The position numbers were made by a program, and so were the translations under genes. The notes beneath the pieces are model-generated. The model did not search any database. It worked only from the letters and a program-made list of their open reading frames with translations, and had not been told where the DNA came from. Shown piece after piece: positions 10,759 to 61,271 of a stretch of 64,000 bases of DNA. Every line of letters begins with the position of its first letter. The stretch's first letter is position 1. This DNA is from Bacillus cereus (lineage in GTDB: Bacteria; Bacillota; Bacilli; Bacillales; Bacillaceae_G), in assembly GCF_002584535.1 (NCBI RefSeq), contig NZ_NUOT01000027.1, positions 97,748 through 161,747 on the forward strand. The letters run 5' to 3'.

Positions 10759-11697
10759 TTATTTATCCCGTAGATTTCTTCCTGTCAATGTCAAGAATAC
10801 TGTTTCTAAGTTAGGTGCTTGCTCTTCAAGTGAACGTATTTCTATATCATTATTGATAAAATGCTGAACGATTTTGTTTAAGTTGTTGACCCCTGTATCC
10901 GAATTCACTTTAATTACGTTTTCTTCTATTTGAATAGCCTTAACACCACTAATTTCTTTTAATTGATTCACATCTATATTTTCAACTGACTTTACTTCAA
11001 CCCAAACATCTTTTGTATCTGTAATAATAGCTTTCAATTGTTCTTTCGTACCTTCTGCAATAATTTTCCCGTGATCCACAATTGCAATTTTCGTACAAAT
11101 CTCTTCTACTTCCTCCATGTAGTGACTCGTATAAATAATGGTGCTACCCATTTCATTTAATTTCCGTACAGACTGAAGAATATAGTTTCTTGACTGCGGA
11201 TCAATTCCAACTGTCGGCTCATCCATAATAATTAACTTCGGATGATGCGCAATGGCACAAGCAATGTTAAGTCTTCGTTTCATCCCACCCGAAAAGTTCT
11301 TTGGATAACTTTTATGTTTATCACTTAGTCCTACAAACTGCAGTGCTTCTTCTACTCTCGCTTTTAATTCTGCCCCTCGTAACCCATACAAACCCGCAAA
11401 GAATTTCACATTTTCATAGGTGGTTAACTCCTCATAGATTGCTATATCTTGCGGTACAATTCCAATATTCATTTTTGCAAATCGATTATGTTTCTCTATA
11501 CTTTTTCCTAGTATACTAATCTCACCTTCATTACTTCTTAACAATCCAGCAATCATATTAATTGTTGTACTTTTACCAGCACCGTTTGATCCTAAAAACC
11601 CAAATATCTCTCCTTCTTTAATAGCTAAAGACATATTATCTACTGCGATGAAATCACCAAATTTTTTCGTTAAATTTTTTATTTCTAATGCGTTCAT
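10759..11697 (-). CDS. ABC transporter ATP-binding protein
   Basis: This ATPase powers the two permeases downstream. The 312-residue protein has Walker A GSNGAGKSTT (about residue 38), the signature FSGGMKRRLNIA, Walker B LIIMDEPTVGID and the switch histidine in TSHYMEE. The C-terminal 80 residues form the extra domain common in drug and lantibiotic exporters. Two ATG codons stand in tandem; I take the second because AGGGG is then 7 bases away. It is the first gene of the exporter operon, with a terminator separating it from the two-component genes. Confidence 0.88.
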   Translation of the reverse strand: MNALEIKNLTKKFGDFIAVDNMSLAIKEGEIFGFLGSNGAGKSTTINMIAGLLRSNEGEISILGKSIEKHNRFAKMNIGIVPQDIAIYEELTTYENVKFFAGLYGLRGAELKARVEEALQFVGLSDKHKSYPKNFSGGMKRRLNIACAIAHHPKLIIMDEPTVGIDPQSRNYILQSVRKLNEMGSTIIYTSHYMEEVEEICTKIAIVDHGKIIAEGTKEQLKAIITDTKDVWVEVKSVENIDVNQLKEISGVKAIQIEENVIKVNSDTGVNNLNKIVQHFINNDIEIRSLEEQAPNLETVFLTLTGRNLRDK

Positions 11698-11734
11698 CAT
11701 TTCACCCCTATCTCAGTTTCTCTGCTGTTATTAT

Positions 11735-17114: not shown

Positions 17115-18782
17115 TTATGGTATTGCAAGAAATTCAGCAATCGGCCCAAGTGCGAGTACTGGTAAAAATGTTAGAACACCTACTATTAATATAGTACCTA
17201 GTAAAATCCCGCCAAATAACCGATCATCCGTCTGAAAGGTTCCTATGGTCTCAGGTACAACCTTTTTCCTTTTGAGTCCCACCGCGACGGCAAGCATTGT
17301 AATTACACCTAAATATCTACCAATATACATAACAATTCCCGTTGAAAGATTCCAATAAGGTGTGTTATCTCTTAATCCTTCAAACCCAGATCCGTTGTTA
17401 ACAGCAGACGACGTGTATTCATATATAATTTGTGTTAAACCATGAAAACCTGGATTAGAAATTGCATCTGTTCCTAGATTCGTAGAAAATGCAATTGCTG
17501 CAGCTCCAAGAATAAGTAACGGCTGAGACACAATCGTGATTGCTATTAACTTCATTTCTTTTCCTTCTATCTTTTTGTTAAGAAACTCCGGTGTACGCCC
17601 CACCATTAATCCGGCTAGAAACACAGCAATCATTGCATACATGACGACATTCATAAACCCAAGTCCAATTCCTCCAAACACGGTACCTAAAAGCATGTTT
17701 ATAAGTGGAACCATTCCACCAATCGGTGTCAAAGTATCATGCGTTGTATTAACACCGCCTGTTCCAGAGGCGCTTGTAACGGTTGCATATAAAGCAGAAG
17801 ATATGACGCCAAGACGAGTTTCTTTTCCTTCCATATTTCCTTGTGAACTTTCTATCCCTAATTGATTTAACAATGCATTCCCCTTCAATTCAAATATAGC
17901 AAGCGTACAGAATCCAATAATAAACAGAATGAACATCGATATAAAAAACATTCTACCTTGCTTTTGATTACCGACCATTCTTCCGTATACAAATGGAAAG
18001 GCCATTGGGATTAACATTTGTAACATCATTTGTAACACATTACTTATCATATTGGGATTTTCAAAAGGATGAGCAGAAACTGTTCCAAAAAACCCCCCTC
18101 CATTGTCACCAAGTTCTTTAATGGAAAGTAAAGATGCTACTGGTCCACGAGGAATCTCTTGTGTCGTTCCTTCAAACGTTTTCACAACAACTGTTGGATC
18201 CAATGTTTGCGGTGTTCCTAAAACCACAAATATTAACGATGTGACAAATGAAATTGGCAATAATATTCTCGTTATAGCTTGTACAAAATCAACAAAGAAA
18301 TTTCCTATTCTTTTCCCCGCTAGTACACGAATAAACGTAATGCCGATTGCCAATGAAGTTGCAGGTGCTGCAAACATCATAAATGTCACACCTACCATTT
18401 GAGAGAAATAGGATAAACTACTTTCTCCCCCATAGTGTTGTAAATTCGCATTTGTCATAAATGTAATCGCTGTATGAAATGCTAATGTTGGTTCTAATCC
18501 TAAAAAATGATCAGGGTTCAACGGAAGAATTCCTTGTAATCGAAATATTGAATATACAACCAAAATAAAGAAAAAATTTGTTCCTATTAAACAAAACATA
18601 TACCGTTTCCAAGTCTGACTATGCCCTTTAATCCCAGCAACTTTAAATAAGATTTTTTCCAGTGGACCAAATACCTTTTGAAATGCTTCCTTACGCTGAA
18701 AAGCATTGTATACGTAGTCTCCCATTGGTTTTGCAAAAATTACGAATAGGCCAATTGTAATTAGACTTGTAAGCCAGTTCAT
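17115..18782 (-). CDS. kdpA: Potassium-transporting ATPase subunit KdpA (kdpB and kdpC absent)
   Basis: KdpA is the potassium-binding, channel-like subunit of the Kdp pump. The 555-residue protein is full length with about ten membrane helices and the four selectivity-filter loops: TNANLQHYGG, NNGGGFFG, GGVNTTHDTL and NNGSGFEG. ATG at 18782 follows GGGGAAAGAGG. A c-di-AMP riboswitch and terminator precede it. Normally kdpB and kdpC follow at once; here the 3' side holds 130 bases of non-coding sequence and then a decayed regulator. KdpA has no known pump activity without KdpB, so the gene may be a relic, may pair with subunits encoded elsewhere, or may have a new role. Confidence 0.93.
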   Translation of the reverse strand: MNWLTSLITIGLFVIFAKPMGDYVYNAFQRKEAFQKVFGPLEKILFKVAGIKGHSQTWKRYMFCLIGTNFFFILVVYSIFRLQGILPLNPDHFLGLEPTLAFHTAITFMTNANLQHYGGESSLSYFSQMVGVTFMMFAAPATSLAIGITFIRVLAGKRIGNFFVDFVQAITRILLPISFVTSLIFVVLGTPQTLDPTVVVKTFEGTTQEIPRGPVASLLSIKELGDNGGGFFGTVSAHPFENPNMISNVLQMMLQMLIPMAFPFVYGRMVGNQKQGRMFFISMFILFIIGFCTLAIFELKGNALLNQLGIESSQGNMEGKETRLGVISSALYATVTSASGTGGVNTTHDTLTPIGGMVPLINMLLGTVFGGIGLGFMNVVMYAMIAVFLAGLMVGRTPEFLNKKIEGKEMKLIAITIVSQPLLILGAAAIAFSTNLGTDAISNPGFHGLTQIIYEYTSSAVNNGSGFEGLRDNTPYWNLSTGIVMYIGRYLGVITMLAVAVGLKRKKVVPETIGTFQTDDRLFGGILLGTILIVGVLTFLPVLALGPIAEFLAIP

Positions 18783-18848
18783 CCTCTTTCCCCTTTCTGT
18801 TCCCATTACACTATAATTAAATGTAATATTTTTCCACCAAGAGAATAA

Positions 18849-18880
18849 AAAGAAAACACCAGGTTGCACCTAGTGTTTTT
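18849..18880 (-). terminator. Riboswitch expression-platform terminator ahead of kdpA
   Basis: On the minus strand the stem AAAACACTAGGT/ACCTGGTGTTTT (one U-G pair) with loop GCA is followed by CTTTTT. It lies just after the c-di-AMP aptamer and 67 bases before kdpA, so ligand binding would favour termination. Confidence 0.85.
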
Positions 18881-18894
18881 TTACACACAAGTCC

Positions 18895-19030
18895 CCCCTC
18901 TCAAAACGCTGACGAGGTTAGCTGTCGGGTTCGGGCCTTGAGAGTAGCCCTACCTATAAAAGGATTCACCCCTAGTGACGAATGCACAAATTTGGTTCCC
19001 CCGCTCCTGAAGTGGATTAAGCGATTTATT
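18895..19030 (-). ncRNA. Cyclic di-AMP riboswitch (ydaO/yuaA class)
   Basis: On the minus strand the conserved blocks of this class occur in order: CGGGGGAACC, AGGGGTGAATC, GTAGGGCTA, CCCGAACCCGACAGCTAACC and CGTCAGCG. The pairing CGCTGACGAGG with its partner closes the aptamer. A promoter lies just upstream and a terminator downstream. This class switches off potassium uptake genes when c-di-AMP is high, and a similar element is known in front of kdp genes in B. thuringiensis. Confidence 0.93.
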
Positions 19031-19069
19031 ATTTGGCTGTAAAATCTACATTGAGCTATTCTGATTGTT

Positions 19070-30732: not shown

Positions 30733-31830
30733 TTATAGAACAAGCACTTTTTGTAACACATCATCTAATACATATTGTTTGTGTACAAGTGAAGAAACCA
30801 TACCGCTTTGCATCCCTCTATATGCTGGAAGAAACGTAATTATATCGCCTACTCGATATGTCTCACTATCTGTTATATCAATGATTAAATGATCACTACT
30901 TCCGCCAAGAATCTCGATATGCCCATCAAGTGGATATAGCCCACTAATATCAAGATCTTGTCGACCAATCGCAACAATGGCTCGCAATCGTTCTCCTTTT
31001 TCTTCAAAACATGGAACTTGACCGAAAGCGTTTTTTCCAATCACACCTCTAGGCATCGAAGGCTTTCTTTTAACCTCAATAATCTCAGCTTCTACTGAAA
31101 ATATATCTTGGTACATAAAAGGAATGTTCTTCCCATATGCTGTTTCTTTCCCAAGAAAAATAGCCTCACCAATACGAAGAGAATTGACCCGCCCTATTTC
31201 TTTCCTTTGTAAGATAAGCGGTAAGGAACTGGAGTTTCCACCCGAAATAATGGAAAGTGGCTGCGCGATTGTTTCTTCCACTAGCTCAGTCAATTGTGTT
31301 AGCTCTAGCAAAGAAGATTCAGTTGGAATCACACCGCTAAAACAAGTAAAATTGGCTCCAATACCAACAAGCTCTATCCCCTGTATCCCCACTACTCTTT
31401 GGGCAATCTCCACCATTTGCACAGGCAACATACCTTCGCGAAGGTCTCCTAAATCTACCATTAAAATGATCTGATGTATTTTCCCATATTTCGTCGCAGC
31501 CCTTCCCAATGCCTCAATCACGCAGAGTTCAGAATTCAAACTTATATCTGCAGTTAGAACTGTCTCCTCTACTTCTGATAAAGCTGGTGTTCTAATTAAA
31601 AGAAGTTCCGCACTGTTTCCCATCATTTTACGGATTTTATGAAGATGCTGTAATCTTGAATCTGCAAATTTTGTAAATCCAGCTTCTTTCAAAATTCCGA
31701 TTACTTGTGTTGCAGCACTTACTCCTTTTGTAACTGGAAAACATGAAACATTTGCATGCTCACATAATCGTTTTATCATAATGGCATTATGCTTTAGTTT
31801 TGAAAGGTTTATTTTCATGATGGGCCGCAT
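30733..31830 (-). CDS. Ornithine/alanine racemase-like PLP enzyme (SfaC-like)
   Basis: The 365-residue protein is a fold-type III PLP enzyme of the alanine-racemase N-terminal family. The PLP lysine is expected at K35 in CFPVTKG, a form seen in ornithine racemases. The C-terminal part is a beta domain ending in GDIITFLPAYRGMQSGMVS. ATG at 31830 has GGAGG 7 bases upstream. It is 11 bases downstream of an IucA/IucC synthetase gene. In staphylococci SfaC of this family supplies D-ornithine for staphyloferrin A, and I infer a similar role here. Confidence 0.8.
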   Translation of the reverse strand: MRPIMKINLSKLKHNAIMIKRLCEHANVSCFPVTKGVSAATQVIGILKEAGFTKFADSRLQHLHKIRKMMGNSAELLLIRTPALSEVEETVLTADISLNSELCVIEALGRAATKYGKIHQIILMVDLGDLREGMLPVQMVEIAQRVVGIQGIELVGIGANFTCFSGVIPTESSLLELTQLTELVEETIAQPLSIISGGNSSSLPLILQRKEIGRVNSLRIGEAIFLGKETAYGKNIPFMYQDIFSVEAEIIEVKRKPSMPRGVIGKNAFGQVPCFEEKGERLRAIVAIGRQDLDISGLYPLDGHIEILGGSSDHLIIDITDSETYRVGDIITFLPAYRGMQSGMVSSLVHKQYVLDDVLQKVLVL

Positions 31831-31841
31831 TTTTATTCCTC

Positions 31842-33641
31842 CTACATACAAAGTGGATTGGGGAAATTTGTATATAAATACGATTTCGCTTGATCATGTA
31901 TTCTCATCGAAAATAATGCCTTAGTCTCAATACAAGGTGCAAATATTGCTGCTCGTTGCTCTTCTGTTACCCCTACCATAAAATCTTCCACCACAGCTGC
32001 AACAATTCTCCACAACTCTTTTTCCTGTATATCATCAACTGCTCGAGCCAATGTAAATAGCAAATCCCCAAAATGATTTTGCAATACAGAATGAATAAAC
32101 TTGTTATATACTTCAGTCATATTCTCTGTAAATAATGCTGCTTCTTTCATAATCGAGAGGTCTATCAATTCCGCCAATTTCTCTTTATAAATTCTTACTC
32201 CACCAAGATCACGAATGAGAATACGTTGTACTTCACCATTTTTTGTCACAATAATAGAATTTTGCATATGTCCTTCTAGGGCAATCCCATATCGTACAAC
32301 AAGTTCTAACAATGGCAACATCACTTTCTCAGTATAATGAGCAATATAATAGAATATCTCTTTTTTACCGATTTCCTCTTTGTCAAAATATGTACGCATT
32401 ATATCTAAAATGACAGATTCGTTTTCTTTTAATGGATTATCGGCTGTTAAACTTGCACCAACCCATAATAATTCTCCTTCTCTTCTATACTGATTGGGAT
32501 CATCCCGTAAAATAAATGCTAAATTACGTCCTAAATCCCTAGTATTCGGTTTAGAAAAATAGGCTCCTACTCGTTCCCTTACAACAACAATAGACTGCTC
32601 TAAATTTTGTTCCTTTGTATAGATGCCATCTAATACTTTTGATAATAGTGGGCCATTTACTGTTATTTCTGGTGACACGGTACGAACTGCACTCGTTGCT
32701 TGCGCTCGCACTGGAAGTTTCACGTGATATGGTAATTTTAATACATTCATTGTTCGAAATGATAATGTTGCACGTGAAGATAGTTGATATGGCACTGGAA
32801 TAATCCACCCCTCTTCTAACTCTGAACCATATTCTTCTTGTAATACATGTTCATACTGCCATGGGTGAATGAGAAATGGATAATAATCTTCCATTCTTTT
32901 TTCTTTATTTACAAGTAATGTGTGCACTGCTTCATATAACTCTGGTGAATTTTCATATATAAGTGGTTTCTGCATGTGATCTCCGGTTACTTCAGCTACT
33001 TCTTTATGAACGAGAAGAACATGTAACGGAACAACATGTTCAAATTCTGGTGCATACAATTTCACTTCTTCTCTTGATAAACCAAGTTTCGTTTTCGTAG
33101 ATGGATGAAGCGGATGTCCCTCAATAACAAGTGATTCCGTATAAGTAAGCTCATCAAATGGTATACATGCTTGTAAAGCTTTTAAAAATTGATATAAATT
33201 GTTAGGCTTTGTTTTTGTTGCAAACAAAACGTTTGTCTCTAATTGTTGTTTCACCCATTCTTGTTTCCGATTCCATGCTTCGTATGCTAGTGCTAAATTG
33301 GTTACACTGTTTTCCAATTCTTCTTGTAAAGACTGTGAAATATGAATACGAAAGAACGGGGCAACTTCTTCCCAAAACATTGACAATGAATCAATCCACC
33401 GTATATGTCCACGAACTTTAAAACGAATTGGGAATATAAACTCGTATCGTTCAAACGCTCCCTCTTGTTTTACTTCTAACAATAATTCCGCATCGTTCAT
33501 ACTATCTACAATCTCTATGCCATGCTCATGTTTCAATATTGCACAGTTCTCTTGTAGCACTTTCTCTCGAATCAATGCATTGCAAAAACGATTTAAAATA
33601 CTACGTTCTGCTTTTACTCTATTAACTTGTTTTCTTTGCAT
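31842..33641 (-). CDS. IucA/IucC family siderophore synthetase (SfaB-like)
   Basis: This NRPS-independent siderophore synthetase uses ATP to join a carboxylate such as citrate to an amine. The 599-residue protein has the family motifs GHPLHPSTKTKLG (near residue 175), LIHPWQYEH, FRTMNV, and the FhuF-like second half with EGHMQNSIIV and IRDLGGVRI. ATG at 33641 overlaps the end of the exporter gene, so translation is coupled. Position between exporter and racemase genes matches sfaB of the staphyloferrin A locus. Assignment to a particular acyl donor is inference. Confidence 0.85.
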   Translation of the reverse strand: MQRKQVNRVKAERSILNRFCNALIREKVLQENCAILKHEHGIEIVDSMNDAELLLEVKQEGAFERYEFIFPIRFKVRGHIRWIDSLSMFWEEVAPFFRIHISQSLQEELENSVTNLALAYEAWNRKQEWVKQQLETNVLFATKTKPNNLYQFLKALQACIPFDELTYTESLVIEGHPLHPSTKTKLGLSREEVKLYAPEFEHVVPLHVLLVHKEVAEVTGDHMQKPLIYENSPELYEAVHTLLVNKEKRMEDYYPFLIHPWQYEHVLQEEYGSELEEGWIIPVPYQLSSRATLSFRTMNVLKLPYHVKLPVRAQATSAVRTVSPEITVNGPLLSKVLDGIYTKEQNLEQSIVVVRERVGAYFSKPNTRDLGRNLAFILRDDPNQYRREGELLWVGASLTADNPLKENESVILDIMRTYFDKEEIGKKEIFYYIAHYTEKVMLPLLELVVRYGIALEGHMQNSIIVTKNGEVQRILIRDLGGVRIYKEKLAELIDLSIMKEAALFTENMTEVYNKFIHSVLQNHFGDLLFTLARAVDDIQEKELWRIVAAVVEDFMVGVTEEQRAAIFAPCIETKALFSMRIHDQAKSYLYTNFPNPLCM

Positions 33642-34824
33642 GGACAAATTCCTTCACCTTTCCTTTTTGCTGTTTCAGTTTTATAAATTGAAATAAAGAC
33701 GGGATCATACATATAACTCCCATTAAAATAAATGTTTGAGCAATACCAACATATTCAATGGAATAACTAACTAAAATAGAACCAAGTGGTATCATCCCTC
33801 GATCCATCAGTACTACACTAAGCATAAGTCCCCTCTCTTCTTCACGGACATGATGCTGAAAATAGACACGGTTACTTGATCGTAATAACTGACCAAATAG
33901 ACCAATAGAAAATAAAAGAATAAAAAATACATATATATTACTAACAATCAGTAGTGCTAAAGAAATTGAAAATGCAATTAAGCTAACATTATACAGGCGT
34001 ACTTCTGAAATATATGTCAATGCTTTTGGAAGAATCACAGTAGCTATGATTGCACCAATTGCAGCTGATGACATAGCGATTCCAAACACTTCTGCTTTTC
34101 CCGTAAATTGCTTTGAAACAAGCGCTGGTAAAACCGATGTATAGGAAAAACCAAAAGCCATTGTAATAAGTGATGTCACAAAGATATTTCTTCCCATTTT
34201 GTCATAAGAAAAATATGCAGCAATTTGTTCCCAACTCGCTTTTTTCTTTTCTTTTCGCTTTTTCATTTGGTGATCTTTCATTGGTATCACAAGAATCCAA
34301 GCAATAAGTGCACAAACAGCCTGCATCATAAATGTTAATTCGATATGCCCTGCTGCAATAAGAAATCCTGCTAATGCCGGCCCAGTTGATCGACAAACAT
34401 TCATGACAAATGAATGCATGGAAATCAGTTTGCTAATTTGATTATTTGTATCAATATCTGAAAGAAGTGTATTCCGGTTTGGTGTTTCTAATGCACTAAT
34501 GACCCCACGAATAAATGAAAAAAGTAAAAAGATAAAATATGAAGGAGTAACTAAAGCAACATAAACCGCAAGTAAAGTTGTCAATACAAATCCCCATAAG
34601 GAATATGATTTCATTAATTTGACACGTGGATACAAATCACAAAGCTTTCCTGCATAAACACTAAATAATACGATTGGAATGAGTCGTACAAAGTTTAACC
34701 ATCCTAAATATGTCGCGCTATGGTACAAATCATAGACATACCAATTAATAGCAGTCATTCCGAGCCAATTCCCCATAAACAAAAAAAATGAACTACCAAA
34801 AAACAGTTTTCGAATAAGAATCAC
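33622..34824 (-). CDS. MFS exporter (SfaA-like), probable siderophore efflux
   Basis: The protein of about 400 residues has twelve predicted helices and MFS loop motifs (for example GKLCDLYPRVKLMKS and FIRGVISALETPNRNT). It is first in the minus-strand unit with an IucA/IucC synthetase and a racemase-like gene, the place of SfaA, which exports staphyloferrin A. The start is uncertain: the frame stays open to a GTG at 34887 inside the Fur box, a GTG at 34824 has no ribosome site, and an ATT at 34815 has GAGGTGA at ideal distance. I give 34824 as a compromise. Confidence 0.83.
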   Translation of the reverse strand: MILIRKLFFGSSFFLFMGNWLGMTAINWYVYDLYHSATYLGWLNFVRLIPIVLFSVYAGKLCDLYPRVKLMKSYSLWGFVLTTLLAVYVALVTPSYFIFLLFSFIRGVISALETPNRNTLLSDIDTNNQISKLISMHSFVMNVCRSTGPALAGFLIAAGHIELTFMMQAVCALIAWILVIPMKDHQMKKRKEKKKASWEQIAAYFSYDKMGRNIFVTSLITMAFGFSYTSVLPALVSKQFTGKAEVFGIAMSSAAIGAIIATVILPKALTYISEVRLYNVSLIAFSISLALLIVSNIYVFFILLFSIGLFGQLLRSSNRVYFQHHVREEERGLMLSVVLMDRGMIPLGSILVSYSIEYVGIAQTFILMGVICMIPSLFQFIKLKQQKGKVKEFVHAKKTS

Positions 34825-34871
34825 CTCAAATTTTTTGTTGCATTTTTTAATCCACTCTTTATAATTGAAAT

Positions 34872-34886
34872 TGATTATCGTTATCA
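34872..34886. promoter_or_regulatory. Fur box between the divergent siderophore-type genes
   Basis: TGATTATCGTTATCA matches the 7-1-7 Fur consensus TGATAATNATTATCA at 12 of 14 defined positions. It lies in the only gap between the two divergent transcripts, so iron-loaded Fur could repress both. Confidence 0.8.
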
Positions 34887-34952
34887 CTTTAAAGACAATA
34901 TAAAATATTCTCTCTTTTTTGTAAAGAGCTAAAATTGAGGAAGGTGGTTTCT

Positions 34953-36932
34953 ATGCACTTACACAGCATTCATTCATTTGAGGTAGAAGAACAAACATTA
35001 TTTTCTTTTTTACAGCAAAACCATCCACCGCTACATGAAATATATAAGCAAAATTTATATAAAGGTCGGAACGGTATATTAGAACGACTACTATCTTCTG
35101 TCATCCGAGAAAATATAAGCAATCTAATGGATACTGTGGTGACATTTCAAAAGTCAGCGAAGACGTTTGTTTCTATTTCAGCGTACCGTTGTCCAGATTA
35201 TTTACTAGATTATATACATACACACCAGAAGAGTTTTGAAAAATATTCCATAATACAAGCTTTATATTTTAAGAAACAAGACTGCTACTTACTCGTACCA
35301 GTTCAACAAATGTATGCTTTCGAACGTCCAATTGTAAACGGGCCATACATGCTCATATCACTATCTGAGCAAAAAGAAATTACACATCCAAATGAAGTGT
35401 TAGCTTTAATTTTTCAAGAAGGTTGGAAAGGACAGTCTTCTTATTTTCATATGTTCGAAGAGGATTTAGCTAATAGTGCTGCTAATTTATCGCTTGCCTA
35501 TACATTTCATGAACAGTCTACTGAGGTATCAACATTAGAAGCAGCTGCACAAACAGATAATCATTATGCTTTTTTTGAACAGCTTGTTATTGAAGGACAC
35601 CCTTGTCATCCTGGAGCAAAAATGCGAAAAGGCTTAAACCCTGAAGAAACAATTGCGTATTCAGCAGAGTTTAAAAATACGATTCCACTTCGATTTGTAG
35701 CCGTTCATAACAAAGAAGTAAGTACTGCGTTTATGAAATCACAAGATTGGAATCCTATCATCTTTTCTTTAGAACCTGTACTGAAAGCCGAGGCAGAGAT
35801 TAGGCTAGATGATAGAATAGATGATTATCTTCTATTACCTATCCATCCTTGGCAAACGATGCATACATTGCAAGAATTATACAAAACAGAAATTGAACAG
35901 AAAAAAATTATTATTTTTGATTATGAGGCGCCTTATGTAGCTGGTATGTCATTTCGTACCATCTTCCCAGCACAGTATGATACAAGAAAACCTCATTATA
36001 AGTTAACAACGAATGTTCATTTAACAGGAGAAGTGCGAACCTTATCAGAACAAACGATTCATAACGGTCCACTGATGAGTAATATATTACAAAAAATTAT
36101 AAAAGAAGATACAAGTATCGATGAAAGAAGATTTATTCCGATTATGGAATGGGCTGGCGCACATTTTCTCAGTGCAAATGACTCTAATATAGATTTGCAA
36201 ACTTTGAGAAGTGAAAATCTTGCATGTGTCATTCGTGATAATGTATACTCCTATATAAATAAAGATGAATGGGCTATTGTCGGTTCTGCTCTTGTTGCAT
36301 CTGCACACGGAGCGAATCAACCACTTATTGTTGAACTTATCGAACTATATAAAGTAAAGAATTGTCTACCATTACATGATGCAATCGTTTCATTTATTGA
36401 AAAATATGTAGCTAACGCTTTAACTGGATTTATTCCACTTATGGTGAAGTACGGAATCGGCTTAGAAGGCCACTTGCAAAATACAGTACCTGTCTTTAAA
36501 AAAGATGGCACACCAGACCGACTTCTTGTTCGTGATTGGGAAGGCATTCGTGTTCACCGTGGTCGTTTACAACAGGAAGGGCTTGACAGTACAAACTTCC
36601 ATCACAAATCACGCATTTTAGTTGATGATGAAAAGAGCGTACGAAACAAGGTATTTTACTCCGTTATGCAAAATCACTTTGGAGAGTTATTTATTCATGT
36701 AAGCCGTTTCTATAACATAGACGAACAATTGCTTTGGAATATTGTAAAACGAGTCACAAAAAATATCTTTTTAGATTTACAACAAGACTCACGCTATACA
36801 AAAAACGCAACAACTGATTATGATATCTTCTTTGCAGAAAAGGTAGACTATAAAGCCCTGACGCTAATGCGAATGATGGGGGAAGCTCACTCCTATTTTT
36901 ATGTAAAAGTCGATAATCCATTGTATAAATAA
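34953..36932 (+). CDS. IucA/IucC family siderophore synthetase (SfaD-like)
   Basis: This is the second NRPS-independent siderophore synthetase, 659 residues, divergent from the other three genes. Motifs are VIEGHPCHPGAKMRKG (near residue 215), LPIHPWQTMH, FRTIFPAQ, EGHLQNTVPVF and VRDWEGIRVHRGR. An N-terminal extension of about 90 residues distinguishes it from the synthetase at 31842. ATG at 34953 has GAGGAAGGTGG just upstream. The divergent placement is that of sfaD, whose product joins citrate to the side-chain amine of D-ornithine before SfaB adds the second citrate. Confidence 0.86.
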   Translation: MHLHSIHSFEVEEQTLFSFLQQNHPPLHEIYKQNLYKGRNGILERLLSSVIRENISNLMDTVVTFQKSAKTFVSISAYRCPDYLLDYIHTHQKSFEKYSIIQALYFKKQDCYLLVPVQQMYAFERPIVNGPYMLISLSEQKEITHPNEVLALIFQEGWKGQSSYFHMFEEDLANSAANLSLAYTFHEQSTEVSTLEAAAQTDNHYAFFEQLVIEGHPCHPGAKMRKGLNPEETIAYSAEFKNTIPLRFVAVHNKEVSTAFMKSQDWNPIIFSLEPVLKAEAEIRLDDRIDDYLLLPIHPWQTMHTLQELYKTEIEQKKIIIFDYEAPYVAGMSFRTIFPAQYDTRKPHYKLTTNVHLTGEVRTLSEQTIHNGPLMSNILQKIIKEDTSIDERRFIPIMEWAGAHFLSANDSNIDLQTLRSENLACVIRDNVYSYINKDEWAIVGSALVASAHGANQPLIVELIELYKVKNCLPLHDAIVSFIEKYVANALTGFIPLMVKYGIGLEGHLQNTVPVFKKDGTPDRLLVRDWEGIRVHRGRLQQEGLDSTNFHHKSRILVDDEKSVRNKVFYSVMQNHFGELFIHVSRFYNIDEQLLWNIVKRVTKNIFLDLQQDSRYTKNATTDYDIFFAEKVDYKALTLMRMMGEAHSYFYVKVDNPLYK

Positions 36933-42651: not shown

Positions 42652-42822
42652 CTATGCGCGAACTTCGGCATATTTTTTAATGTCCCTATACTCTTTTTCT
42701 AGTTCCTCTAAAGAAAGCTCGTATAATTGTCGATCAAGAATTTTAAACACACCAGCTCCAATTAACTGGTCAATTAACTGCCTCCTGCGAATTTCAATAG
42801 CAAAACGGAGTTGACTACTCAT
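42652..42822 (-). CDS. fbpA: Fur-regulated basic protein FbpA
   Basis: The 56-residue protein reads LRFAIEIRRRQLIDQLIGAG, then VFKILDRQLYELSLEELEKE. This is the FbpA pattern (arginine-rich helix, LIDKLI, GVYK, QLYELTLSELE). FbpA belongs to the iron-sparing response, acting with the small RNA FsrA in B. subtilis to lower iron-rich proteins. A Fur box lies 35 bases upstream of its ATG. AGGGG lies 11 bases before the ATG, a rather long spacing. Confidence 0.85.
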   Translation of the reverse strand: MSSQLRFAIEIRRRQLIDQLIGAGVFKILDRQLYELSLEELEKEYRDIKKYAEVRA

Positions 42823-42856
42823 CTTTTTAAAAACCCCTTTCTACAATAACTGAAAA

Positions 42857-42871
42857 TGATAATCCTTATCA
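42857..42871 (-). promoter_or_regulatory. Fur box of fbpA
   Basis: TGATAATCCTTATCA matches the Fur consensus at 13 of 14 defined positions. Confidence 0.87.
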
Positions 42872-60298: not shown

Positions 60299-61204
60299 TC
60301 ATTGTTTCATAGACATCATTTGTTCTTTCGTGTCTATTTTGTTATGATGAAATTTATTTTTCTCCAAATATTGCTTGCATATATTCACAAAAGACGGTAA
60401 TGTTCGAATTTGATCAATATCAGAGCTCTCAATGAAATGATTCATTTGATTTGTCATTTCGTTCATACTAGAAATAAGCTCCTCTTTTTCATGCCTCAAT
60501 CTCTCATTTTCAGCACGAAGATTTTGAAGCTCTTTCTGTATATCTTGTGTATTATCTTCTTTTCTATGCCCAGCTGCCATACTTGAAAGTTTATAAATTC
60601 CTTCCATAAACTGATACAGTTCTTTTTTCTGCCCTTCCGCACCAATTGTTTCAAAATTATCGACAATACCTGATAATATAGTAACTAGATTATTTTCTGT
60701 CTTTTCATTTTGGAGCACTATACTTTTCCCTTCATTCCACTTCTCATTTATATGCTGTTCTGGTTCGTGTTTTTTCTTGCGTCCAGGTGTCCCCTTTTTT
60801 ATATTTTCAAACGGTAACTCTTGTTTTTTTAATTTATAGTACGTATTCTGTAGTTGGCTTTCCGTTTTCGGAAATAAATGTAGATTCTCTTTACTAATCG
60901 CCTTTGAAGTATCTGCAATATTTAAATTATAATGCTGACAAAATTGATACGTAGCATATAAAAATTCCAGCTCTGATTTCAACCACATCATTTGGGATTG
61001 CTCGTATGCAAATACCCCGCCCACTTTTTCAATATCCCTTTGAAAGGCTACCATTTTATGATATAAGTCCATTAACTCTGCATACGTTACATGGAATTTC
61101 CTTTCTATTTCCCTACACTCTTCTTCTATTTTCTGAACATTTTTCATTCCACTCACTATATTTTTCAAAAGATCTAGTACATGAATTGCTGTCTGTTGGT
61201 ACAT
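60299..61204 (-). CDS. Hypothetical protein with coiled coil and basic linker
   Basis: The 301-residue protein is helical. It has a basic central stretch (KKGTPGRKKKHEP, near residue 150) and a leucine-spaced coiled coil (IQKELQNLRAENERLRHEKE, near residue 225). It has no membrane segment. The combination suggests a DNA- or protein-binding regulator. ATG at 61204 is preferred because GGGAG lies 10 bases upstream; the longer ATG has no site. A perfect palindrome lies 68 bases upstream. I do not recognise the family. Confidence 0.6.
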   Translation of the reverse strand: MYQQTAIHVLDLLKNIVSGMKNVQKIEEECREIERKFHVTYAELMDLYHKMVAFQRDIEKVGGVFAYEQSQMMWLKSELEFLYATYQFCQHYNLNIADTSKAISKENLHLFPKTESQLQNTYYKLKKQELPFENIKKGTPGRKKKHEPEQHINEKWNEGKSIVLQNEKTENNLVTILSGIVDNFETIGAEGQKKELYQFMEGIYKLSSMAAGHRKEDNTQDIQKELQNLRAENERLRHEKEELISSMNEMTNQMNHFIESSDIDQIRTLPSFVNICKQYLEKNKFHHNKIDTKEQMMSMKQ

Positions 61205-61271
61205 TTTATATTCACTCCCACTCAGCATTTTTGCAATTTCAACTTCTTCTTTGTCTTTTGTAAAAATAAAA

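What the first reader, a model, noticed from the sequence alone, without database searches (positions are those of the whole stretch)
30733..36932. Staphyloferrin A-type siderophore locus in a Bacillus
Four genes reproduce the gene content and layout of staphylococcal sfaABC-sfaD. An MFS exporter, an IucA/IucC synthetase and an ornithine-racemase-like PLP enzyme form one overlapping minus-strand unit, and a second, longer IucA/IucC synthetase diverges from it. B. cereus group organisms are known for petrobactin and bacillibactin; the asb petrobactin genes (asbC-F) are absent here. The simplest reading is a third siderophore made from citrate and a D-amino acid such as ornithine. Seen: motifs, order, overlaps. 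Known: the Sfa pathway. Inferred: the product.
Basis: partly seen in the sequence, partly recalled or inferred. Interest (0 to 1): 0.88.

Follow-up and report, generated by a model that had tools for sequence, protein, structure and literature searches.

The report
Staphyloferrin A-type siderophore genes outside staphylococci
A Bacillus-like bacterium carries the full four-gene set that staphylococci use to make the iron-scavenging molecule staphyloferrin A, so it probably makes the same or a very similar molecule; this is a new carrier of a known pathway, not a new kind of system.

Summary
Four open genes lie at 30733-36932: an ornithine-racemase-like enzyme, an NIS synthetase and an MFS exporter (minus strand), and a second NIS synthetase diverging from them. 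In 18 of these 20, htsABC-like genes follow; the two binding proteins tested match the staphyloferrin A receptor HtsA best. The window's SfaD-like synthetase falls in a clade made only of racemase-linked enzymes (SH-aLRT 100); its SfaB-like one falls in the SfaB clade, which also holds two decarboxylase-linked enzymes. A Fur-like box lies in the shared promoter. Most decarboxylase-linked pairs (probably rhizoferrin-type) branch elsewhere. Verdict: a staphyloferrin A-type locus; product inferred; no importer in the window; source organism not established, though a MogR gene fits the B. cereus group or a near relative. New member of a known kind.

The parts
30733..31851 (-). sfaC-like, ornithine-racemase (Orr) family PLP enzyme
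   Evidence: Ala_racemase_N E 4.7e-19; racem_Orr 391 bits, cut-off 480; 43-47% identical to SfaC of four loci from larger genomes (L146, L147, L149, L198), 32-37% to 16 Staphylococcus-like loci; 31 positions incl. K42 invariant in 23 aligned rows
31842..33647 (-). sfaB-like NIS synthetase
   Evidence: IucA_IucC + FhuF; 38-43% to SfaB of those four loci, 32-35% to 16 Staphylococcus-like SfaB; SfaB clade SH-aLRT 99, 100/100; all 32 nearly invariant NIS columns kept
33622..34887 (-). sfaA-like MFS exporter (true start probably about 20 codons further in)
   Evidence: MFS_1/MFS_3; in the SfaA clade of 18 rows (SH-aLRT 100), apart from 10 of the 11 decarboxylase-linked exporters
34866..34886 (.). 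Fur-like box, two overlapping 7-1-7 motifs, in the divergent promoter
   Evidence: 12 of 14 consensus positions at 34872-34886; 2 of 300 Markov-simulated copies of the 180-base region reach this; 17 of 20 relatives have 12-14 of 14 near the sfaD start (no control was run for the relatives). Window-wide, sites with up to 3 mismatches are not in excess: 18 against 15.6 expected
34935..36932 (+). sfaD-like NIS synthetase (start probably ATG 34953)
   Evidence: IucA_IucC + FhuF; 47-48% to SfaD of L146, L147, L198 and 57% to the partial L148, 34-38% to 16 Staphylococcus-like SfaD; 14-row clade, all racemase-linked, SH-aLRT 100

Best explanation
This is a staphyloferrin A-type biosynthesis and export locus. 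The racemase turns L-ornithine into D-ornithine. The SfaD-like synthetase activates citrate with ATP and joins it to the delta-amine. The SfaB-like synthetase adds a second citrate to the alpha-amine, giving N2,N5-dicitryl-D-ornithine (staphyloferrin A) or a very near analogue. The MFS protein exports it. Both transcripts start from one divergent, Fur-repressed promoter and switch on when iron is short. Uptake would need an HtsABC-like importer and an ATPase encoded elsewhere. Shown here: gene content, order, clade membership, kept invariant residues, Fur-like box. Inferred from the staphylococcal pathway: every enzymatic step, the substrate, the product and the regulation.
For: Layout sfaD <- -> sfaA-sfaB-sfaC recovered in G053, G095, G078 (with htsABC and an ATPase) and in Staphylococcus-like loci. 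The two adjacent binding proteins that I tested (L146, L149) match HtsA (3eiw, 3lhs and others) best, E 1e-84 and 2.1e-78. NISd clade racemase-linked only. The racemase's nearest rows by path are the four SfaC from larger genomes, and it is 44.5% identical to an Acetoanaerobium homologue that scores 549 bits on racem_Orr. Fur-like box; a better Fur-like box (1 mismatch) beside an FbpA-family gene suggests that this motif is in use in the genome. Roles of SfaA-D and HtsABC in Staphylococcus: PMC3996567 passages; two synthetases plus racemase: PMC7857480 section 11.
Against: No HtsA, HtsB or HtsC relative lies in the window (the only ATPase match is the ATPase of an ABC-2 exporter at 10759-11700), unlike 18 of the 20 racemase-linked relatives. 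The racemase is below the curated Orr cut-off, as are the three SfaC tested (347-411 bits) and a Vibrio homologue outside a siderophore locus (376 bits), so its score does not prove ornithine. NISb's place inside the SfaB clade is unresolved, and that clade also holds two decarboxylase-linked enzymes. Identity to the Staphylococcus-like enzymes is only 32-38% for the synthetases and the racemase, so a changed amino-acid substrate is possible. No chemistry.
Confidence: 0.8

Rival explanations
1. The locus makes an analogue: two citrates on another D-diamino acid (for example D-lysine or D-diaminobutyrate), because the racemase or SfaD has shifted specificity.
For: Only 32-38% identity to the Staphylococcus-like SfaB, SfaC and SfaD; racemase below the Orr cut-off; a lysine analogue, corynebactin, exists in another genus (PMC7857480 section 11).
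Against: The racemase groups with the other SfaC rows (SH-aLRT 91, not starred) and next to Orr-family enzymes; two neighbours with the same enzymes carry HtsA-like receptors.
Confidence: 0.12
2. Rhizoferrin-type locus: citrate joined to ornithine or putrescine, with decarboxylation.
For: NCBIfam's best named relative for both synthetases is FslA, far below cut-off; many of the fetched loci carry two related NIS genes with an ornithine-decarboxylase-like gene; two SfaB-clade enzymes sit in such loci.
Against: No decarboxylase in the window (best tblastn E 0.93), a racemase instead; NISd lies outside both decarboxylase-linked clades; grouping NISb with the two decarboxylase-linked SfaB enzymes is disfavoured (p-AU 0.031, group named after the first tree).
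Confidence: 0.05
3. A relic that no longer makes a siderophore, since no importer is nearby.
For: No hts genes in the window.
Against: All four frames are open, all 32 nearly invariant NIS positions are kept in both enzymes, the promoter box is kept; petrobactin uptake genes also lie far from their biosynthesis genes (PMC13293324 passages).
Confidence: 0.03

Closest known systems
Staphylococcal sfaABC-sfaD / staphyloferrin A
   Same: Four genes, order, divergence, Fur-like box; racemase-linked SfaD clade and SfaB clade
   Different: 32-38% identity for the synthetases and racemase, 40-45% for the exporter; htsABC does not follow sfaC.
   Same: Closest relatives (38-57% for the synthetases) with the same core layout
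   Different: These carry htsABC next to sfaC, three of them also an ATPase gene; G487 has no exporter between sfaB and sfaD
Rhizoferrin (FslA/FigA with FigC N-citrylornithine decarboxylase) and decarboxylase-linked NIS pairs
   Same: Two citrates on an ornithine-derived bridge; related synthetases
   Different: Decarboxylase instead of racemase; separate clades, except two SfaB-clade enzymes
Petrobactin asbABCDEF
   Same: NIS synthetases; AsbB is the best PDB match of NISd (115.6 bits)
   Different: Neighbouring genes are others; match only moderate

Membership tests
Staphyloferrin A (sfa) locus | Two different NIS synthetases of the SfaD and SfaB lineages | tested here: met
Staphyloferrin A (sfa) locus | Ornithine-racemase-type PLP enzyme encoded after sfaB | tested here: met
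   family placement only, below the curated Orr cut-off, activity not shown
Staphyloferrin A (sfa) locus | SfaA-lineage MFS exporter between sfaB and sfaD | tested here: met
   the clade also holds one exporter from a decarboxylase-linked locus
Staphyloferrin A (sfa) locus | sfaD divergent from sfaABC with a Fur box between | tested here: met
   sequence motif only
Staphyloferrin A (sfa) locus | htsABC importer next to the locus (usual, not universal: 18 of 20 racemase-linked loci) | tested here: not met
   tblastn of HtsA, HtsB, HtsC of L146 against the window: nothing below E 0.8; it may lie elsewhere in the genome, which is not held. A companion trait, not needed for biosynthesis
Staphyloferrin A (sfa) locus | Product N2,N5-dicitryl-D-ornithine | not testable with these tools
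   Needs enzyme assays or mass spectrometry
Rhizoferrin (FslA/FslC type) locus | Citrylornithine/ornithine decarboxylase beside the synthetase | tested here: not met
Petrobactin (asb) locus | asbC-F directly next to the NIS genes | tested here: not met
   The neighbours are NhaC, a racemase, an MFS exporter, DUF1980, ArsP and CobW; asbC-F were not searched for one by one, nor in the genome

The most novel reading that the evidence does not exclude
The NIS synthetase pairs of Bacillales are a mix-and-match family in which exporter, SfaB-like enzyme and PLP partner (racemase or decarboxylase) are swapped, and this window is one outcome, in or near a lineage known for petrobactin: a dicitrate siderophore with an amino acid other than D-ornithine, read by its own receptor encoded elsewhere.
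Probability: 0.12. Interest if true: 0.6.

Novelty: new member of a known kind. Interest (0 to 1): 0.4.

Why it matters
Staphyloferrin A biosynthesis is described as a core trait of the genus Staphylococcus (PMC12709192 section 6). It also gives comparison enzymes for how racemase-linked and decarboxylase-linked dicitrate pathways diverged.

Tried and rejected
Scan of genome contigs with the SfaD-like protein: 7 stretches matched a pattern, none a relative. Plasmid searches with the SfaB- and SfaD-like proteins: 1721 and 1743 records, all under 60% identity; two megablast searches, of 24.9 and 22.0 kb of the window, against plasmids: no match. Rhizoferrin-type reading: disfavoured by the missing decarboxylase and the clade of NISd. 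Petrobactin-type reading: disfavoured by the neighbours.

In the fumarase loci no run of neighbouring window genes was found, so no empty site could be shown (the one cluster of matches, in L075, is a pair of other NIS genes and an MFS gene). MogR: over cut-off in 3 of 249 order genomes, two more below it; the three belong to the 19-genome family of Ectobacillus panaciterrae; the abstract of PMC7793685, as far as listed, says that outside Listeria MogR is known only from the B. cereus group. So the host is probably near that group, not proven in it. PDB matches for the racemase at E up to 0.001 and for a beta-lactamase-like protein at 1e-10: none.

Literature: eight searches of the held library on this question and one on MogR; several listings were capped (20 of 28, 15 of 16, 15 of 89). 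I opened passages of 13 papers, and whole sections of two of these. No listing title and no opened passage reports a staphyloferrin A locus in a Bacillus; where a producer was named it was Staphylococcus or Staphylococcaceae, apart from one weak region of a kefir metagenome whose best match was an actinomycete (PMC8103080). Papers that were listed but not opened could differ, so this is not proof that none is in print.

Full report
What is there. Pfam gives Ala_racemase_N, IucA_IucC plus FhuF twice, and MFS. NCBIfam's nearest named models are ornithine racemase Orr (391 bits, cut-off 480) and, for both synthetases, the rhizoferrin enzyme FslA far below cut-off (224 and 217 bits of 1000). Flanks look ordinary: NhaC on one side, with a fumarase further out; a DUF1980/ArsP pair and a ZigA-like CobW GTPase (529 bits, cut-off 600) on the other. 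No other NIS gene and no HtsA-, HtsB- or HtsC-like gene was found in the window.

Relatives. I fetched loci for 18 of the 166 and 26 of the 42 (some in both). Of the 42, 16 were not looked at: G418, G453, G515, G534, G581, G598, G606, G622, G630, G677, G701, G708, G724, G740, G748 and G764. So counts of loci are lower bounds. A script labelled ORFs by BLAST against the window genes and against transporter and decarboxylase genes of relatives.

Two kinds of locus appear. (1) Racemase-linked, 20 genomes: sfaD divergent from sfaA-sfaB-sfaC in G053, G095 and G078, each followed by htsA-htsB-htsC and an ATPase (in G078 sfaD runs off a contig edge); in G487 without an exporter in between; and in 16 genomes of 2.0-3.0 Mb that look like Staphylococcus by size and layout (names are not given). 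Three of those 16 (L200, L202, L203) show no exporter gene, which agrees with the sfaA deletions reported for several staphylococci (PMC12709192 section 6). Two of the 16 (L202, L203) lack hts next door, so 18 of the 20 have it. (2) Decarboxylase-linked: two NIS genes in a row, often an MFS gene, and an ornithine-decarboxylase-like gene (Pfam for three of them). These resemble the FigA/FigC rhizoferrin logic, in which FigC decarboxylates N-citrylornithine (PMC7857480 abstract, passages and section 11). A few NIS pairs have neither enzyme in the stretch fetched (L155, L199, L223, L227, L228).

Trees. The 80-row NIS tree holds 70 of 91 collected rows plus 10 further outgroup rows; left out, to save time, were the rows of L202, L203, L205, L206, L209, L211, L212, L217, L218, L222 and one broken row of L219. 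The window's NISd is in a clade of 14, all racemase-linked (SH-aLRT 100; one of them, the partial L148, labelled by hand), next to L146, L147 and L148 (93). NISb is in a clade of 17 (99): 14 racemase-linked, two decarboxylase-linked (G695, G742) and one with neither (G703). The program warned of long outgroup branches. A careful 20-row tree of the SfaB side confirms the clade against six outgroup rows (100/100) but not the order inside it: racemase-linked SfaB plus the window as one clade is not rejected (p-AU 0.263), window plus the two decarboxylase-linked enzymes is disfavoured (p-AU 0.031; both groups were named after the first tree). In the racemase tree (23 rows; L202, L203, L211 left out) the window and the 17 other SfaC rows form a group with SH-aLRT 91, below the star level; its nearest rows by path are L146, L198, L149 and L147. 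The exporter falls in the SfaA clade of 18 (100), which also holds one exporter from a decarboxylase-linked locus, G076.

Function signs. In 89 of the 91 NIS rows (two partial rows left out), 32 columns have one letter in at least 95% of rows, and both window synthetases keep all 32. 31 positions, K42 among them, are invariant in the 23 racemase rows; that K42 binds PLP is my inference. The divergent promoter holds TGATTATCGTTATCA (34872-34886), 12 of 14 positions of the Bacillus-type Fur consensus (recalled), with an overlapping second copy; 2 of 300 simulated copies of that 180-base region reach 12, and 17 of 20 relatives have 12-14 of 14 near sfaD (L200 10, L213 11, L215 11; no control for these). 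Over the whole window, sites with up to 3 mismatches are no more common than chance (18 against 15.6); the one better match, at 42857-42871, lies beside a gene of the Fur-regulated FbpA family.

Uptake. The binding proteins beside sfaC in L146 and L149, the two that I tested, match S. aureus HtsA (3eiw and related entries) best of all PDB chains, at 1e-84 and 2.1e-78; HtsA as ferric-staphyloferrin A receptor is from PMC3996567 passages. That ties the window's nearest kin to staphyloferrin A itself rather than to a distant analogue. The window has no such gene nearby, so uptake is open.

Host. Not established. The window carries a MogR gene (166 bits), a family over its cut-off in 3 of 249 order genomes, all in the Ectobacillus family, and otherwise reported only from Listeria and the B. 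cereus group (PMC7793685, start of abstract).

Verdict. Known kind, new and divergent member.

Noticed in passing
window 42652-42871: A 56-aa gene of the Fur-regulated basic protein FbpA family with a Fur-like box (1 mismatch) just upstream.
   Followed up: partly
window 17115-19033: kdpA behind a c-di-AMP riboswitch (106.7 bits); no ORF of kdpB size stands next to it: apparently an orphan KdpA.
   Followed up: no
window 60299-61228: MogR-type motility repressor, useful for placing the host.
   Followed up: partly
L196, L197 (G695, G742): SfaB-clade synthetases linked to a decarboxylase and to a second NIS of the decarboxylase-linked clade: apparent partner swap.
   Followed up: partly
L153 (G076): Decarboxylase-linked NIS pair with an SfaA-like exporter, 51% identical to the window's over 395 columns.
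   Followed up: partly
L075 15977-20908 (Bacillus sp. RO1): A pair of related NIS genes and an MFS gene about 4.6 kb from the fumarase gene.
   Followed up: no
L209 250-6584: Two htsABC-like sets in tandem downstream of sfaC.
   Followed up: no
L146, L147, L149: A siderophore-type ATPase gene beside htsABC in these three loci; none was labelled in the Staphylococcus-like stretches fetched.
   Followed up: no
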